Below the pieces are notes generated by a model. That model did no database searches and was not told where the DNA came from. It was given only the letters and a program-made list of their open reading frames with translations. DNA of 35,572 nt, taken from assembly GCA_017516465.1 (NCBI GenBank), contig JAFXCR010000014.1:1-35572 (forward strand). Direction: 5' to 3'. The position numbers and the translations under genes are program-made. The DNA comes from Ruminococcus sp. GTDB taxonomy: Bacteria; Bacillota; Clostridia; Oscillospirales; Ruminococcaceae. This document shows, piece by piece, positions 10,772 through 26,353 of this stretch. Numbering within the stretch: the stretch's first letter is position 1; each line of letters begins with the position of its first letter.

Positions 10772-13700
10772 TTAACCCTTAACGAAGTCCTTAGGATCAA
10801 GTGAAGTTATCGACTTAAGGAGGTACTTCTGGATCTGAAGAGCGTCGTTATTTGTGAGACCTGTGCCGTTCTCGTAAACGTCAGCGTTAGCCTTACCCTG
10901 AGCATTAATTGTATACTCATCGGGGTTACCGAGAGACTGGAGAATGAGGATAGCGTCGTTCAGGAGAACTGTACCATCGCAGTTTGTATCGCCCCAGAGT
11001 GTTGCATCAGTACCACCAATCGGAGGAAGGTCAGAACCTGCCTTATGAGCATCAGGAGCTTCGTCCTGCATGAAGGAAGTAATCCAAGCGAGAGGAGCGT
11101 TCCAGTTGATTGTAACTTCGTTTGTAGACCATGCTTCGATTGAGTCAACGAAACATCTCTGTGACGGGTTGTCGAGATCACCAGGAACGAATCCGAGTGC
11201 ACGAACGTAAGGATCCTGGAGACCTGCGTTAGGACCACCGGAAAGGATTCCGTCAGGAGCCATAGGCAGAGTCTTATCGAGTTCGTAAGACCAGTATCTG
11301 TGGTGAGGATTCTCTTCCTTGTATGTACCGTAACCAGTTACATAAGAGAATGAAAGCGGGTTACATCCAAGGAGATAGTTCATAGCTGTAACAACACCGT
11401 TCATGTACTTAACATTCTGATTGAGGTCGAAAGCATAAGCCATAACGATACAGTTGTTGATAACCATGGAGTTTGAACCCCACTCATAACCCTGAATCTC
11501 TACAGAAGGATCAAGGTTATTAGGATCGTTGTAAGGATCACCGTCGTACTTGTAAGGAATACCATAACCCTGAACTTCTTCTTCAGCGATATAGTCATCA
11601 GCAGCCTTTGTGATAGCAGCCTTTACCTTGCTGTTTTCCTCTTCAGAGAGAAGATCGCTGTGGAGTGAAAGTGAGAGTGAACCTGCAGAAGCAGTATTAC
11701 CCCAGTTAAAGGATGTGAATGAACCGTCCTTATTTTCACCGCCGACCATTCTTGTATGACATGTGTAAGCGTACTCAGAATTATCCATTTCGCTCTTGTA
11801 TGTTGAAGCGTCAGCATCGCCCATCTCAGAGCATGAGAGATAGAGCTCACAAGCTGCCCAGTAAGCGTCGTCCAGAACGTTGTTATCACCGTAAGGTCCG
11901 CCGCCCTTTGCCTGCCACATAGGAGCGTAGAGTGAATTCTCGTTTATTTCTTCCTTAGGACACTCACACTTAAGATCAGGATGTGTTGTAGGTGTAGCAT
12001 CATATTCATACCAGTGCTTCTGGTAAGCAGCATAAGCTTCCTTAGCTGTCTCAAGGTAAGTATTAGCCTTTGTTTCATTGAAAGGCTTCCAGAGTCTTGC
12101 AGCCTGAGCAGCACAAGCAGCATAGTTAAGTGTAGCAGCAAGCGTCGGAGGCTTTACGATACGAACTGTACCCCAACCCTTTGAACCATCTTCAAGCTTA
12201 TCGCCTGCATAGTCCCAAGGCTTAGTAGCAAGACCAGTCCACTTGTGGTCGTGGAGCTTGTGGTAGTAAAGTCCATCATACTTGCCCCAAGCTGAGTCAG
12301 TAGATACAACCTTCATCTGAGCAATAAAGTCAAGTTCTACTGCTGCCTCATCGAGGATATCAGGAACCTTATTGCCAGCCTCAGGAACTACAACTGTACC
12401 TGAAGCGTCATCAAACTTACCATCATAGCCTTCCTGCTTGATAGCTCTCTCATACATATTCTGGAGAGTCCATACAGAGATACCGCCGTTAACAACGTAT
12501 TTACCGTGGTCACCAGCGTCGTACCAACCGCCGTTAGCAGTCAGTGAACCAGACTTGTAAGTAGTTGTTGCTTCGTCCTTGGAAGCATACTCGTTCTTCC
12601 AGATCTTCTGGATTGTAGCTGTATCAGTCTTATGACCGCCCTTATGGCCCATTCCTGTACCCTTGCCGTCTGAACCGCCTGATGTACAGTACTCATCTTC
12701 AATATCAATACCTGAACGGTTCTGATAGAAGTAGTTTACAGCGTTTGTGAGCAAATTGTGTGACTCATCATAGTAGATTGTGTCAGCAATATTGAATTCA
12801 AATGATCTCCAGTCCTGACCCTTGATGCGGAGGAAGTATCTTCCGGGAGTCTTGTACTCAGAGAAGTCAATCTTACATACGTTATCCTTAGAGTCCTTAT
12901 CAAGCTTCTTCGCAGCTGTTGTACCTGTGTAAACAACGTCACCTGAAGATGCGTTTACAAGCTCAAACTCATAAGTGTCAGAAGAAAGATTAATTTTTGT
13001 AGCTCCGTGAAGGATATCACCGTTATTATCGCCGAGAGTAGCTGTCTTAGCGAGGTTAGGATAGTAACCAATCTGGTTTACAGAAATAAAGTTAACAGTC
13101 TTGCCGCCAACCTTCATATCATCATGTCCAGCAGCACTATAATCACGGTTTGTAGCGCCATATGATTCGTCAGGGTTTGAATTACATGTACCCTCTGCAT
13201 ACTCATCAGGACAAGTTACACACTCGATAGACATATTGTCAAACCAGATTTCGTCTCCGTCCTTAGCGTTTCCGCCGTAAGTGTTAGCTGTACCGTTAGC
13301 ATAGTGGAAAGCCCACTCTACGCCTTCGAGATCACCGTCAGGAGTAAATGTACCTGAGAATGTCTTGTAGGATGTAGAAAGCTTTGTAGCACTTCCCCAC
13401 TTACCGCTGCTGTTCGTCGAATTAGAAGAATTGTGAGGACCCATAACCATTTCGCCAGAAGCTCCATCAAGACAGAAATATTCATAGTCACCAGAGATAT
13501 CACCGATCTTTGAGCAAAGTTCCATACCTTCTCTTGAAGCCTTAGCATCGAAGCTTACCTTGTAAGTATGGCCACCCTTGAAGTTGAGGTTTCTGTGTCT
13601 GAACTGAAGATCCCACTTGGACTTGTCAGCACCATCAGCTGTAATAATCGAGATGTGGAAAGCACCGTCTTCGATTAAGAAGTTCTGCTTAGCAGGGCTT

Positions 13701-13861
13701 GATTCACAAGTATGCCAAGGAAGTGCCTTGTATTCGAATGTAGATTCACCAAGAACCTGACCAGCTGATACACTCATAGGTGCCACAGCAGGAATTGCGG
13801 GTGCAACCACTGTTGCTGCCATAAGACTTGCAACGATTGCTTTTGATAATTTCTTATGCAT
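10772..13861 (-). CDS. Cellulosomal GH9 cellulase: signal peptide, CBM4/9-like domain, Ig-like domain, GH9, dockerin
   Basis: 1029 residues, secreted. Signal peptide about 1-34 (MHKKLSKAIVASLMAATVVA start); a CBM4/CBM9-like carbohydrate-binding domain about 38-215; the N-terminal Ig-like domain of GH9 cellulases about 255-360 (VNQIGYYPN); the GH9 catalytic domain about 365-930 with the catalytic-base motif DAGD (448-451), NPHHR (851-855) and the acid E915 in NEVTINWN; and a dockerin about 955-1016 with two calcium-loop repeats (GDTNCDG, then ADVYENG). The enzyme hydrolyses beta-1,4-glucan inverting the anomer and would be held on a scaffoldin by the dockerin. The start is the ATG at 13861 with AGGGAGGGT seven bases upstream; a longer frame reaches 13921 but has no signal-peptide logic. 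Cys-rich patches at 214-226 and 632-634 are unusual. Confidence 0.95.
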   Translation of the reverse strand: MHKKLSKAIVASLMAATVVAPAIPAVAPMSVSAGQVLGESTFEYKALPWHTCESSPAKQNFLIEDGAFHISIITADGADKSKWDLQFRHRNLNFKGGHTYKVSFDAKASREGMELCSKIGDISGDYEYFCLDGASGEMVMGPHNSSNSTNSSGKWGSATKLSTSYKTFSGTFTPDGDLEGVEWAFHYANGTANTYGGNAKDGDEIWFDNMSIECVTCPDEYAEGTCNSNPDESYGATNRDYSAAGHDDMKVGGKTVNFISVNQIGYYPNLAKTATLGDNNGDILHGATKINLSSDTYEFELVNASSGDVVYTGTTAAKKLDKDSKDNVCKIDFSEYKTPGRYFLRIKGQDWRSFEFNIADTIYYDESHNLLTNAVNYFYQNRSGIDIEDEYCTSGGSDGKGTGMGHKGGHKTDTATIQKIWKNEYASKDEATTTYKSGSLTANGGWYDAGDHGKYVVNGGISVWTLQNMYERAIKQEGYDGKFDDASGTVVVPEAGNKVPDILDEAAVELDFIAQMKVVSTDSAWGKYDGLYYHKLHDHKWTGLATKPWDYAGDKLEDGSKGWGTVRIVKPPTLAATLNYAACAAQAARLWKPFNETKANTYLETAKEAYAAYQKHWYEYDATPTTHPDLKCECPKEEINENSLYAPMWQAKGGGPYGDNNVLDDAYWAACELYLSCSEMGDADASTYKSEMDNSEYAYTCHTRMVGGENKDGSFTSFNWGNTASAGSLSLSLHSDLLSEEENSKVKAAITKAADDYIAEEEVQGYGIPYKYDGDPYNDPNNLDPSVEIQGYEWGSNSMVINNCIVMAYAFDLNQNVKYMNGVVTAMNYLLGCNPLSFSYVTGYGTYKEENPHHRYWSYELDKTLPMAPDGILSGGPNAGLQDPYVRALGFVPGDLDNPSQRCFVDSIEAWSTNEVTINWNAPLAWITSFMQDEAPDAHKAGSDLPPIGGTDATLWGDTNCDGTVLLNDAILILQSLGNPDEYTINAQGKANADVYENGTGLTNNDALQIQKYLLKSITSLDPKDFVKG

Positions 13862-13905
13862 TTTAAATACCCTCCCTGAAAAATATAAATTATTGTAAAT
13901 TATAA

Positions 13906-13929
13906 CGCAATGCCAGTGCACACATTGCG
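13906..13929. promoter_or_regulatory. Palindrome in the leader of the first GH9 gene (possible operator)
   Basis: CGCAATG (13906-13912) and CATTGCG (13923-13929) are perfect inverted repeats with centres 17 bases apart. They lie 45-68 bases upstream of the ATG and touch a candidate -10. The size and symmetry suit a dimeric repressor site or a 5' hairpin. Which regulator, if any, is unknown. Confidence 0.4.
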
Positions 13930-14157: not shown

Positions 14158-16569
14158 TTACTTCTCAGGAAGCTCAGTCAACAGACCAAGAATATACTTC
14201 TGAATGGACAAAGCATCCATATTTGTAATACCTGATCCGTTTTCGTAAACGTCAGAATTCAATACACCCTGTGCAGTAATACGCATATCATCAGAACCGT
14301 TCTCGCCGTAAACATCAGGATTTCCTATTACCTGAAGCACGAGTATTGCATCGTTGAGGAGAACCTTTCCGTCACAGTTTGCATCGCCCCATACATCTAC
14401 CTCAGGCTTTGTGCCGGGATCAGGAGTTGTGCCGGGATCCGGATCAGGTGTCGGATTATCTGTTTCTCCGAGATCAGCACCAGGAACTGCCTTTGTACCG
14501 TCGGGTTCTTCGCCCCATACAAGAATTCCATTAATGTACATAGGAATATGCTTATTATAGGAAGCAGGATCCTTGAGACTGTCAGTAGCAGTTACACCCT
14601 CATATGAGAAGTCGTTTGTAGGATCCCATGCCCCCTTTGTAGGCTTTCCGTCGATAGCATCGGGAATTGATACTCTGAACTGTACCTCGTCACGATGTTC
14701 ACTCTGTCCGGTTGGCTGAATTGCTCTGCCATCCTCGAACTTAACTTCTGCGTAATATGTGTTTCCGGAAGGATCTCCTTCATACTTATAGGGACCTGAT
14801 ACAGTACCGTAACCTTGTTCGCCTTCCTTATACTGCTGAGACTTTCCTTCAACCTTTAAAATATCAACTGAATATCCTGCTTCAAGAAGTTCAGATACAT
14901 CGAAGAAATAACGATAGGATATATCCTTCTGAACTCTTGCCGGCCATGCTGTGTGGTTCATTGCCCATGCTTTGATTTCTGTGTAGCTGTCACCCTTACC
15001 ATTGAGAACAGCACCGACCTTCCATTCATCCCATGTAGGTGTTTCCTTGGGCGGGAAGTCAGCAAGCTTTGTGCCGCCGTTATCTTCGATCATAGCACAC
15101 ATCGCAGCAGTAAATCCAGCATTGTAGTCGATAGCTACTTCTGAATACTCATACTGAGCAACGCTGTTTGTGTATTCGCCTGACTGATTAGGACCTCCGA
15201 CAAGTGCACCATAGAGAGTATGAGCATATTCTGTCTGCCAGCCCTCGTTGCTGCCTTCCTGACCGAGATCATTCCAGTGGTCATCGTGAACGCCGGAAGT
15301 TGTTCTGTGGTGGATAGCAGTAGGATTCTTGTCGCCCATTCCGAGAACATAGCAAAGCCCGAGATCGTTGTCTCCGAACATATAGTCAAGCTGTCCCTTT
15401 GCCCAGTCATTGTACTTTGAAGCAAGTGAAGCATCGTCCTTGAAAATTGTATCAGCAGCAACCTTTGCAATCCATACTGTATTTGCAGAATGACGGTTTG
15501 CACCCCAGTTCATGAGCCATGCAAGACCATCGGGAGTATATGTTACACGCTTTCCGCCGTATCCCTCATCCCAGTAATCAAGGTGATGTGAGATATGGTC
15601 GATCCACTCCTTCTTGCCTGTGTTTATAGCATAGAGCAGAGCGGCTGCCTGTGTTGTATCATCCCAGCAGAATCCCCATGTATACTTCCAGTCTGTGGAC
15701 TGGCTCTCTGTCGGGAACTGCGGAATATAATCAGTTTCGCACTTTTTTAGATAAGCTTCATCGCCAGTAGCCATATAGAGCCAGTTTGCAGCGTACATAC
15801 AGTCATCAACCCATGAGCTTGGCTTGTACATGGTTCCCATAGCACCGTTTTCGTTGTCTCTGATAGAGTCAGCAGTCTCAAAGTACTTCTTTGCCTGCGC
15901 AAGATAAGCTGCTGCCTTGTCAGGCTGCTCGTCCTTGAAGATAATATATCCCTGTGCAAGTGCTGCTGCACAAAGAGCTATTGTTGTAGAATCTGCGATC
16001 TCATCGTAAGGACGTACCCAGTCGCCGTTGTTGAGATGATGCTTTCTGAGGTAAACCTCAGCACTACACCAGATGTTATGGTCAGTAGAGCCGCCTGTAA
16101 AGTCACCGATAGTACCAATAACCTTATCGCCTCTGTCTGCCTGCATAACGTAATCAAGTCCCCACTGAACGTTGTTGCGATAAACTTCACCGAGACCAGC
16201 CTTGTCTACGGCATCCTTGTACTGGATATAACCCCATGCAAGAACTGACGCAGAATAAGCGTTTGTAAGTGTAAACTTGAAGTGGTCGCCTGCATCGAAC
16301 CAGCCACCGGGAATGACATCAGTTTCTTTTCCGTCCTCGTCTACCATTGAATCTGCACGCCAGCTTACGCTGTTCCACTCAGGAAGAACACCGGACTGCT
16401 GTACTTCATAGAAGAACAGTGCCTTCTGAAGTGCCTCAGCATAGTTTACATCAACCGCAGCAGATGCACTGATAACAGGTGAACCTGCCTTTTCTGCCGG
16501 CAGATAAGCAGCCATACCCGCTGCCATAGCCATAGCCGATACAGCAGCAGTAATTTTCTTAAATTTCAA
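14158..16569 (-). CDS. Cellulosomal GH9 cellulase: signal peptide, GH9, CBM3c-like domain, dockerin
   Basis: 803 residues from the TTG start, secreted. Signal peptide about 1-37 (L/M-KFKKITAAVSAMAMAAGM start); GH9 catalytic domain about 40-505 with DAGD (92-95), NPTAIHHR near 415-422 and acid E477 in YSEVAIDYN; a CBM3c-like module about 514-690; a Pro/Thr/Asp linker about 704-723; and a dockerin about 727-797 (GDANCDG, then SDVYENG). GH9-CBM3c enzymes are typically processive endoglucanases, the fused module feeding the chain to the active site. Start choice: a promoter at 16625-16653 puts transcription start near 16618, ruling out the ATG at 16620. The TTG at 16569 has AGAGGGG 8 bases upstream and gives a clean signal peptide; ATG at 16587 is the alternative. 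Confidence 0.94.
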   Translation of the reverse strand: MKFKKITAAVSAMAMAAGMAAYLPAEKAGSPVISASAAVDVNYAEALQKALFFYEVQQSGVLPEWNSVSWRADSMVDEDGKETDVIPGGWFDAGDHFKFTLTNAYSASVLAWGYIQYKDAVDKAGLGEVYRNNVQWGLDYVMQADRGDKVIGTIGDFTGGSTDHNIWCSAEVYLRKHHLNNGDWVRPYDEIADSTTIALCAAALAQGYIIFKDEQPDKAAAYLAQAKKYFETADSIRDNENGAMGTMYKPSSWVDDCMYAANWLYMATGDEAYLKKCETDYIPQFPTESQSTDWKYTWGFCWDDTTQAAALLYAINTGKKEWIDHISHHLDYWDEGYGGKRVTYTPDGLAWLMNWGANRHSANTVWIAKVAADTIFKDDASLASKYNDWAKGQLDYMFGDNDLGLCYVLGMGDKNPTAIHHRTTSGVHDDHWNDLGQEGSNEGWQTEYAHTLYGALVGGPNQSGEYTNSVAQYEYSEVAIDYNAGFTAAMCAMIEDNGGTKLADFPPKETPTWDEWKVGAVLNGKGDSYTEIKAWAMNHTAWPARVQKDISYRYFFDVSELLEAGYSVDILKVEGKSQQYKEGEQGYGTVSGPYKYEGDPSGNTYYAEVKFEDGRAIQPTGQSEHRDEVQFRVSIPDAIDGKPTKGAWDPTNDFSYEGVTATDSLKDPASYNKHIPMYINGILVWGEEPDGTKAVPGADLGETDNPTPDPDPGTTPDPGTKPEVDVWGDANCDGKVLLNDAILVLQVIGNPDVYGENGSDDMRITAQGVLNSDVYENGSGITNMDALSIQKYILGLLTELPEK

Positions 16570-16590
16570 ATTGCATACCCCTCTCATTTC

Positions 16591-16606
16591 CCGGAGTGCC
16601 CTCCGG
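16591..16606 (-). promoter_or_regulatory. Small hairpin in the leader of the second GH9 gene
   Basis: CCGGAG-4 bases-CTCCGG is a perfect 6-bp stem in the 5' leader. It locks up GGAGGG, which otherwise would be the ribosome binding site of the ATG at 16587. This favours initiation at the downstream TTG, or may protect the 5' end of the mRNA. Confidence 0.5.
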
Positions 16607-16624
16607 ATATAATTATACAACTTT

Positions 16625-24409: not shown

Positions 24410-26353
24410 TTACTGAGATACAGCGTATGATTCAACAATCAGTCTTCTGAGCAGACATAAATCAAAGGAATCAAGCTGATCATCCTTGCAAAGATCGGAA
24501 TTACGCTTATTTATGACTGTATCACCGGAATCATATATCAGCCACTTCTGCAATACAACCAAATCAGCTATACTGCATACACCATCATTGTTGCAGTCTC
24601 CGTTCATAAAGCGAGTTCCCTGCGGAGAATATCCGTCAAACAGCACTCCGCTTTCCGGTTCCTTATCTGTTTTTCCGATATTAACAGCACTTTCAAACTC
24701 ATCACGGGTAAGAGTTATCATATCATAATACTTTTCATCAAGGAGTCCCTGATCCAGCAGTTCCTGATACATGGAAAAATAATTATTAGTTCCCCACATA
24801 TTGGTACTCGCCTTCCATATCTGAGCCTCAGTGTCATATCTGAAAACCACATTTTTCTGCACCGTCTCAGCTATCTGCACAGATTTGTAGATGAATTTCT
24901 GAGTTTCAGAATCCCATTCCCTTGTATAATCCACGATCTCAGGAACCATCATCTCTCTGATCAGAACGGCACTTTCAGGATATTCCTCCAGTGTTGCTCC
25001 CTTTACATATCGCTTGAACTTGCTGATATACCGTCCGTCAACCCACATATCGGAACAGTATCCCAGACTTCCGCCCCAGTAAATACTGTTTCCTTCGCCC
25101 CATTCATCACAGATAAACGAAGCCTCATCATTGCTCTGATACAGATATGTGTAGCTTCCGCCCATATCTACCCATTCACCGTCGCCGACAGTATCATATA
25201 TTTTATCCCATGTAAGTTCTCCGTCACGGGGGATATCATCTTCCATTTCAATTGCAATATAATCGTCAAGAACCTTTTTTGCTTCCTGAAGAGTTACCGA
25301 TTCATCATTTTCCACGAAGGCATATCGGCGATTGATCTTGTCCTCACTGATTCCCTGACCTTCTCCATTTCCCTGACCGCCATATGTATGAGTTTCGCCG
25401 TTCAGTGTAACATTAACATGGGCATGGCTGGAATCGCTCCACTCACAGACAGCAGATTCATCCAGACGGAGTGCCACCTGCTTCATCATACTGGGAAATC
25501 CAAGAGAATCGTATCTGTACGGATATATCACTGATGATAACAGACTTTTATTATCCCGACGGTTGTAGGGACTGTAAATATAGAATATCTGATCAACATA
25601 GGGAGCTCCTGCCAGCCGCCAGTCTCTTTCGCCAGAACGATATACCTCTCCTCTTACATACGAACCGCTGTAAAAGCAGATTGAAGAGAATCCCTCCTGC
25701 ACCGAGTTCATATCCGCAAAAAAGTCTGATCCTTCCGCAAAATTATCTATAAGGTAGTCGCAGTCATCGCAAAGCTCAGGCAATGTGAATTTCACGCCTG
25801 TATCAGACCATTTGTAATATCCCCTTATGTAATACACATTGCTTCCGTCTATATACTCCTTGTATGTACCGACCGGCATACCGTGATAAGGAGAATATCC
25901 CGTAACCTCCGGATTAGGCGTACCATAAATCTCGGTATTGAATTCCTCTGCGGTTATGTCCTCGTGTATCTGGAGTTCAACCTCGCCGCCGTCGGTAGTT
26001 GCACTCTTGAATATGTATCCTCCGTTCACACGGCAGAATTCCTCATTTTCGTAATCAACATCTGCATAGATATTTTCATCGTTATATATTACCGATGTTT
26101 CAGAATAAGGAGAATCCTTATCAGAAAATCTGAACGATTCAGGGTGCGGATTTTCTGTTTTCACATAGAAGTATTCATTGAACGGTTCCATAAGAGGAAA
26201 AATTTCGTATGTGTACTGTAATGCGTCAACATCCTTGCTGAGATAATCCGTAGCCTCCGCAGTAAGTACGGGAGATTCAGCAGCAAGTAAGTATTCTGAT
26301 ACAGATGTTCCGATAAACGCTCCTGCAAGAAGCAGACTTACAATTTTTTTCAA
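24410..26353 (-). CDS. Secreted dockerin protein of unknown function
   Basis: 647 residues from the TTG start. Signal peptide about 1-25 (KKIVSLLLAGAFIGTS). Residues 30-570 match no family that I recognise; they are acidic, rich in Tyr, Asp and aromatic residues, with a Gly-rich SSHAHVNV...YGGQGNGEGQG stretch near 308-335. Residues about 583-642 are a dockerin: GDCNNDGVCSIADLVVLQKW and a second half with DLCKDDQLDSFDLCLLRR. This type differs from the dockerins of the two GH9 enzymes in the window. The frame extends to TTG 26362, but the TTG at 26353 has AAAAGGGG 9 bases upstream and starts directly at KK. It follows the ABC-F gene by 36 bases, so may share its transcript. Could be a new enzyme, a binding protein or a structural cellulosome part. 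Confidence 0.85.
   Translation of the reverse strand: MKKIVSLLLAGAFIGTSVSEYLLAAESPVLTAEATDYLSKDVDALQYTYEIFPLMEPFNEYFYVKTENPHPESFRFSDKDSPYSETSVIYNDENIYADVDYENEEFCRVNGGYIFKSATTDGGEVELQIHEDITAEEFNTEIYGTPNPEVTGYSPYHGMPVGTYKEYIDGSNVYYIRGYYKWSDTGVKFTLPELCDDCDYLIDNFAEGSDFFADMNSVQEGFSSICFYSGSYVRGEVYRSGERDWRLAGAPYVDQIFYIYSPYNRRDNKSLLSSVIYPYRYDSLGFPSMMKQVALRLDESAVCEWSDSSHAHVNVTLNGETHTYGGQGNGEGQGISEDKINRRYAFVENDESVTLQEAKKVLDDYIAIEMEDDIPRDGELTWDKIYDTVGDGEWVDMGGSYTYLYQSNDEASFICDEWGEGNSIYWGGSLGYCSDMWVDGRYISKFKRYVKGATLEEYPESAVLIREMMVPEIVDYTREWDSETQKFIYKSVQIAETVQKNVVFRYDTEAQIWKASTNMWGTNNYFSMYQELLDQGLLDEKYYDMITLTRDEFESAVNIGKTDKEPESGVLFDGYSPQGTRFMNGDCNNDGVCSIADLVVLQKWLIYDSGDTVINKRNSDLCKDDQLDSFDLCLLRRLIVESYAVSQ

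What the first reader, a model, noticed from the sequence alone, without database searches (positions are those of the whole stretch)
24410..26353. Uncharacterised dockerin protein: a candidate new cellulosome component
About 540 residues between a signal peptide and a dockerin match no glycoside hydrolase, binding module or peptidase that I recognise. The part is acidic and rich in Tyr and Asp, with a Gly-rich stretch near 308-335. A dockerin (established knowledge) means it is docked on a cohesin. So the cell puts an unknown activity on its cellulosome or surface. This is the window's strongest lead for new biology.
Basis: partly seen in the sequence, partly recalled or inferred. Interest (0 to 1): 0.75.

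Follow-up and report, generated by a model that had tools for sequence, protein, structure and literature searches.

The report
Cellulosome protein with cysteine-less transglutaminase-like core
A gut bacterium makes a secreted-looking protein with the plug used to join the fibre-digesting cellulosome; its body belongs to an unnamed family that may be a distant transglutaminase relative without the usual reactive cysteine.

Summary
Minus-strand ORF 26353-24410 encodes a secreted-looking protein whose body matches nothing in Pfam, NCBIfam or the PDB, followed by a dockerin. The genome has 54 dockerin and 5 cohesin matches, four of the latter in a ScaC-ScaA-ScaB-like cluster. The dockerin shows two of four described group 6a features; group 6 binds ScaC in R. 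flavefaciens FD-1. The body is a conserved family in 22 of about 513 genomes examined, all 22 with cohesins. Of 23 complete proteins, 19 carry a dockerin and four do not. Three LRR-dockerin relatives bridge the family to transglutaminase-like domains. In the preferred register the catalytic Cys is an invariant Ser (S283), the His is kept (H310), and no Cys is invariant. My reading: a degenerate transglutaminase/papain-fold binding module docked on ScaC. Direct family-to-transglutaminase comparison is negative, one step is weak, and no structure could be modelled. Unknown dockerin modules are common: 118 of 222 proteins in FD-1.

The parts
24410..26353 (-). Whole gene, 647 codons from TTG 26353, stop included
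26249..26353 (-). Signal-peptide-like N-terminus, residues 1-35 (by eye)
   Evidence: the relatives also begin with a Lys-rich and hydrophobic stretch
25964..26218 (-). N-terminal domain, about residues 46-130, shared with the LRR-dockerin bridge proteins L065, L066 and L168
   Evidence: (own window hit at 25961-26179, E 2.9e-6)
25385..25804 (-). Proposed degenerate transglutaminase-like domain, about residues 184-323
   Evidence: through the bridge; no direct match to transglutaminases
25505..25507 (-). Ser283, invariant in 23 of 23 rows; at the catalytic Cys position in the preferred register
25424..25426 (-). His310, invariant in 23 of 23 rows; at the catalytic His position
25352..25384 (-). 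Gly-rich stretch YGGQGNGEGQG, residues 324-334
24608..25348 (-). C-terminal domain of unknown kind, residues 336-582, with WVDGRY motif
   Evidence: no counterpart in the bridge proteins; no Pfam or PDB match
24440..24601 (-). Dockerin, residues 585-638, group 6a-like in two of four described features

Best explanation
An accessory protein of the cellulosome. Shown by sequence: a dockerin, cohesins in the genome, a conserved body, no conserved Cys in that body. Inferred: it is exported; its group-6-like dockerin plugs into the cohesin of the ScaC-like adaptor, which plugs into another scaffoldin; the middle of the body is a degenerate domain of the transglutaminase/papain-like superfamily in which the catalytic Cys position holds an invariant Ser, the His is kept and the third (acidic) residue is lost. 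Ordinary cysteine-based transglutaminase or peptidase chemistry is therefore unlikely, and the fold most likely serves as a binding module for peptides, proteins or cell-wall material. It is flanked by an N-terminal domain also found on LRR surface proteins and a C-terminal domain of unknown kind. Some relatives have an LPXTG anchor, FN3 domains, or repeat or CAP-bearing ends instead of the dockerin, so the body looks like a module hung on the surface or the cellulosome by different connectors.
For: Dockerin and cohesins; ScaC preference of groups 3 and 6: passages of PMC5301203. Family and its range. Family to bridge: hhalign E 1.6e-10, prob 96.9, aligning DSYISP with DSLGFP and GHYLCY with HAHVNV; MAFFT aligns both the same way; HMMER br3 profile to window 2.1e-7, family profile to L065/L066/L168 6e-6 to 9.1e-5. 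Bridge to transglutaminase: a 75-segment transglutaminase profile without bridge members ranks L065 (1.5e-5), L168 (2.5e-4) and L066 (5.3e-3) next after a member among 837 ORFs; hhalign prob 74, 2.7e-5, 0 of 60 shuffles; bridge profile finds L169 at 7.5e-5 and L171 at 0.010, which match Transglut_core at 2.4e-4 (just under cut-off) and 2.7e-10; L169 finds L065 at 0.005 over 125 residues. No invariant Cys; S283 and H310 23 of 23. Four of 23 relatives without dockerin.
Against: Direct comparison of the family with transglutaminases is negative (prob 0.3; middle part alone prob 0.7); the gdc profile reaches the window ORF only at E 0.92. The middle part of the family against the bridge is weak by itself (prob 5.5, 0.007; top shuffle 20.05 against 21.81). 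Adding the family to the bridge lowers the transglutaminase score. A global alignment puts the transglutaminase Cys on another bridge residue, the Cys of ALCNFA, so the Ser-for-Cys register is not settled. No structure. A binding role is inferred from lost residues only.
Confidence: 0.45

Rival explanations
1. Same fold, but active: Ser283 with His310 works as a serine nucleophile (amidase, esterase or acyl transferase), with the acid supplied from elsewhere.
For: S283 and H310 invariant in 23 of 23 rows; a Cys-to-Ser variant in one papain-like cellulosomal repeat of R. flavefaciens 17 was noted with the same thought (PMC3573020 passages).
Against: No third residue identified; the register that makes S283 the nucleophile is not settled; Ser in such a site often means lost activity (general knowledge).
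Confidence: 0.12
2. The middle of the body is not transglutaminase-like; only the N-terminal domain is shared with the bridge proteins, and the body is an unrelated new fold (glycan-binding or enzyme).
For: The middle part alone compares weakly with the bridge and not at all with transglutaminases; the 250-residue C-terminal domain has no counterpart.
Against: Order and motifs agree in two aligners; 0 of 60 shuffles reach even the weak score.
Confidence: 0.35
3. A member of a known glycoside hydrolase, CBM or peptidase family too diverged for Pfam.
For: It sits on a dockerin, and dockerin cargo is often a carbohydrate-active enzyme (about half in FD-1, PMC2930009 section 13).
Against: No Pfam, NCBIfam or PDB match for the window protein or for the family profile.
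Confidence: 0.08

Closest known systems
Dockerin-borne transglutaminase-like proteins of R. flavefaciens FD-1 (PMC2930009, sections 11 and 13 read)
   Same: Signal peptide, transglutaminase-like part, C-terminal dockerin, rumen Ruminococcus cellulosome.
   Different: Window protein does not match Transglut_core and has no conserved Cys; it has an extra N-terminal and a 250-residue C-terminal domain. The FD-1 sequences themselves were not compared here.
RflaF_05439 NlpC/P60-like modules of R. flavefaciens (PMC3573020, abstract and passages)
   Same: Cellulosomal module of unknown function that proved to be papain-like only by structure; one homologous repeat has Ser for the catalytic Cys.
   Different: Different family (tandem NlpC/P60 with an X-dockerin binding ScaE); the PDB search of this family did not find it.
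LRR_5 - unknown - dockerin proteins L065, L066, L168 of the same genus
   Same: Shared N-terminal domain, DS..P and H motifs, C-terminal dockerin.
   Different: LRR front, shorter body, no counterpart of the C-terminal domain.
Catalytically inactive transglutaminase-like domains such as human EPB42 and FBXO21 (passages of PMC10318531)
   Same: Proposed: superfamily fold kept without catalysis.
   Different: Eukaryotic, not part of a cellulosome; no sequence comparison was made.

Membership tests
Cellulosomal (dockerin) protein | Dockerin module over the curated cut-off | tested here: met
   25.0 bits against 22.9
Cellulosomal (dockerin) protein | Cohesins in the same genome | tested here: met
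   5 matches, 3 over the cut-off
Cellulosomal (dockerin) protein | Export signal | tested here: inconclusive
   Lys then hydrophobic N-terminus by eye; no predictor
Cellulosomal (dockerin) protein | Dockerin binds a cohesin | not testable with these tools
   needs a binding experiment
R. flavefaciens dockerin group 6a | Trp in c1 and d, Phe in b1 and b2 | tested here: inconclusive
   Trp in c1 and Phe in b2 present; the other two absent
Transglutaminase-like superfamily (PF01841) | Match to the curated model | tested here: not met
   no match in the window protein or in 19 aligned members
Transglutaminase-like superfamily (PF01841) | Catalytic Cys | tested here: not met
   no invariant Cys; commonest is C226 in 21 of 23
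Transglutaminase-like superfamily (PF01841) | Catalytic His | tested here: inconclusive
   H310 invariant and aligned through the bridge
Transglutaminase-like superfamily (PF01841) | Third catalytic residue (Asp, or Glu in the L177-L180 type) | tested here: not met
   aligned region is YGGQ in the family, YQAC in the bridge
Transglutaminase-like superfamily (PF01841) | Papain-like fold | not testable with these tools
   structure prediction switched off
Known glycoside hydrolase or CBM family | Match to a curated model | tested here: not met

The most novel reading that the evidence does not exclude
The family is a serine-based offshoot of the transglutaminase/papain superfamily: the invariant Ser283-His310 pair is a working nucleophile that cuts or cross-links protein or ester bonds in plant cell walls or between cellulosome parts, a non-carbohydrate activity carried on the ScaC adaptor.
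Probability: 0.12. Interest if true: 0.75.

Novelty: new variant of a known kind. Interest (0 to 1): 0.4.

Why it matters
More than half of the dockerin proteins of strain FD-1 carry modules nobody could name (118 of 222). This work turns one such protein into a family with boundaries, a conserved core, a predicted docking site and two residues to test. If right, part of the unknown cargo of rumen cellulosomes would be worn-down transglutaminase/papain-fold modules used for binding, or converted to serine chemistry. It does not show a new activity.

Tried and rejected
Direct profile searches of the body gave no fold: Pfam on 19 members (nine single-member rows, best RE_SinI 0.021, OstA_2 0.026, Crystall_3 0.06), NCBIfam (only dockerin, LRR, anchor or weak rows), PDB. 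For the bridge profile the best PDB row is a radical SAM protein at 0.12; two rows are ubiquitin carboxyl-terminal hydrolase 36 at 0.25 and 0.34 around the His motif, and Pfam UCH appears at 0.15 near there in L065. These are papain-fold enzymes (general knowledge) but the scores are chance level, so I did not count them.

LeuA look-alike: one of 396 genomes matched at E 7.0e-4 (G281) and its ORF matches the family profile at 2e-4 among 837 ORFs, over some 42 residues around NGETKTYEGQGNG. I named it LeuA from its sequence without a scan, and rejected it as a short resemblance.

Viral contigs: 26 pattern matches, none a relative. Plasmids: none. Phylum sample: only the own genome, 1 of 398. 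A single-protein search with the L066 region found nothing in 396 genomes.

A conserved operon: not supported. Among 23 relative loci only L036 and L068, which appear to be one contig fetched twice, share the ABC-F and GGDEF neighbours with high identity.

C-terminal domain as a repeat of the N-terminal one: no (prob 0.2).

Full report
Observation. The reading frame lies on the minus strand, 26353-24410. TTG 26353 is the better start: AAAAGGGG ends nine bases upstream, and the nearest relative has ATG at that codon. The protein has a signal-peptide-like front (by eye), an acidic, Tyr-rich body and a dockerin at residues 585-638. The body matches no Pfam, NCBIfam or PDB entry. The gene is convergent with a glutamine synthetase gene and lies 36 bases downstream of an ABC-F gene on its own strand (both names recognised from sequence, not scanned).

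The system. The genome (2.0 Mb in 55 contigs, 95% complete) has 54 Dockerin_1 matches and 5 cohesin matches, 3 over the cut-off and 4 on contig C12. C12 holds a 286-residue cohesin-dockerin protein like ScaC, a 733-residue two-cohesin protein like ScaA, and the cut start of a third cohesin protein in the place of ScaB (names by resemblance and order). I looked at 26 dockerin matches of the genome, the window's two included, out of 54. The window protein's dockerin has the Trp after LQK and the Phe in the second loop described for group 6a, but not the other two described residues (PMC2930009 section 11); the GH9 protein of the window has a group 1-like dockerin. Passages of PMC5301203 say that groups 3 and 6 recognised only the ScaC cohesin in FD-1. 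Docking on the ScaC-like protein is therefore the likeliest arrangement; it was not tested.

The family. The body has no paralogue in its own genome. Relatives occur in 15 of 396 genomes drawn from the taxonomic family (16 rows, one a LeuA look-alike) and in 8 of 125 genomes of the genus (10 rows, two of them bridge proteins). The own genome is in both, so 22 genomes of about 513 distinct ones (8 members of the genus were in the first sample). The first search used one protein and is less sensitive than the second, a profile. A phylum sample found the family only in the own genome, 1 of 398. All 22 genomes have cohesins (24 of 25 with the three bridge genomes, the exception being the bridge genome G814); how often genomes without the family have them was not measured. 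Two relatives carry names, Ruminococcus sp. MAGs RGIG6339 (sheep rectum) and UBA3665. Of 23 distinct complete proteins, window included, 19 have a Dockerin_1 match at E 0.01 or better (L043 is just under the cut-off, L047 matches in part). Four have none: L044 (FN3), L046 (CAP, repeats), L048 (LRR_5, RCC1, LPXTG-like anchor) and L050 (repeats) (repeats seen by eye). Four carry an LRR_5 front. dN 0.18 and dS 1.19 against L036.

The bridge. The family profile found two weak matches covering only its first third. Both, and a third found with their profile, are LRR_5 - N-terminal domain - unknown - dockerin proteins. The profile of the three against the family gives E 1.6e-10, prob 96.9, and runs on past the shared N-terminal domain, aligning HWDSYISPAALCNFARRI with YDSLGFPSMMKQVALRL and GHYLCYCEINGEGKFYQA with HAHVNVTLNGETHTYGGQ; in the opposite direction (family as query) only 56 columns of the N-terminal domain are aligned. 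MAFFT places both motifs the same way. The middle parts alone compare weakly: prob 5.5, 0.007, 0 of 60 shuffles but the top shuffle close.

From the bridge to transglutaminases. The bridge profile hits L169 (7.5e-5) and L171 (0.010). L171 has Transglut_core at 2.7e-10 and L169 at 2.4e-4, just under the cut-off. L169's domain finds bridge protein L065 over 125 residues at 0.005. A profile of 75 transglutaminase-like segments without bridge proteins, run on 837 ORFs, ranks L169 first (it is a member), then L065 1.5e-5, L168 2.5e-4 and L066 5.3e-3, with the next ORF at 1.6. By hhalign the bridge middle scores prob 74, 2.7e-5, with 0 of 60 shuffles reaching it; four other pieces of these proteins score prob 1.8 or less. 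In the longest local alignment GGDCW lies on HWDSY, Cys on Ser, and the His residues coincide, at prob 16, 0.0016. A global alignment puts the Cys on that of ALCNFA instead. I prefer the first because the 18 residues from D-C or D-S on fit without a gap, though only 3 of 18 are identical. In either register the window family has no Cys there: the only common one, C226, is present in 21 of 23, while S283, H310 and the Gly pair are in 23 of 23.

Against it. The family compared directly with transglutaminases gives nothing (prob 0.3 to 2.8), and adding the family to the bridge lowers the bridge's score. The link is a chain of two steps, and within the first step only the N-terminal domain is strong. 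The C-terminal domain is absent from the bridge and unexplained. No structure could be made.

Mechanism. Shown: dockerin, cohesins, conservation, no conserved Cys. Inferred: export, docking on ScaC, transglutaminase-like core, loss of cysteine chemistry, a role in binding. Replacement of the dockerin by an anchor or repeat domains in some relatives fits a surface-binding module. The strict Ser-His pair keeps a serine enzyme possible.

Novelty. In FD-1, 118 of 222 dockerin proteins hold unknown modules, and transglutaminases are counted 10 times (PMC2930009 section 13). An unknown cellulosomal module was earlier shown by crystal structure to be papain-like, with Ser for Cys in a homologous repeat (PMC3573020 passages). 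I saw no description of this family, or of a cysteine-less transglutaminase-like dockerin protein, in the listings or in the sections and passages read; that is a limited search. I rate it a new variant of a known kind.

Noticed in passing
window 10772-13921 (-) and 14158-16620 (-): Two neighbouring GH9 cellulases, CBM4-GH9 with a group 1-like dockerin at 10817-10993 and GH9-CBM3 with no dockerin match, in the pairing that PMC2930009 Table 1 gives for FD-1 ORF01132/01133.
   Followed up: partly
L062 / L071 (genome G887): The family copy in this genome has one in-frame TAG: a broken copy, an assembly error or recoding.
   Followed up: no
L177, L178, L179, L180: A transglutaminase-like subfamily with GGGDCW, GSGH and Glu in place of the usual third Asp, in 600-residue proteins.
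   Followed up: no
L048:6044-10147: A family member between LRR_5 repeats and RCC1-like repeats with an LPXTG-like anchor, in a genome that also has cohesins.
   Followed up: no
L053:3550-7647 and L053:7689-11489: Two adjacent LRR_5 - family - dockerin genes in tandem in genome G139, which has a third member elsewhere.
   Followed up: no
L055:2-3611: The ScaB-like gene is cut by the contig end, so the scaffoldin set of this assembly is incomplete.
   Followed up: no
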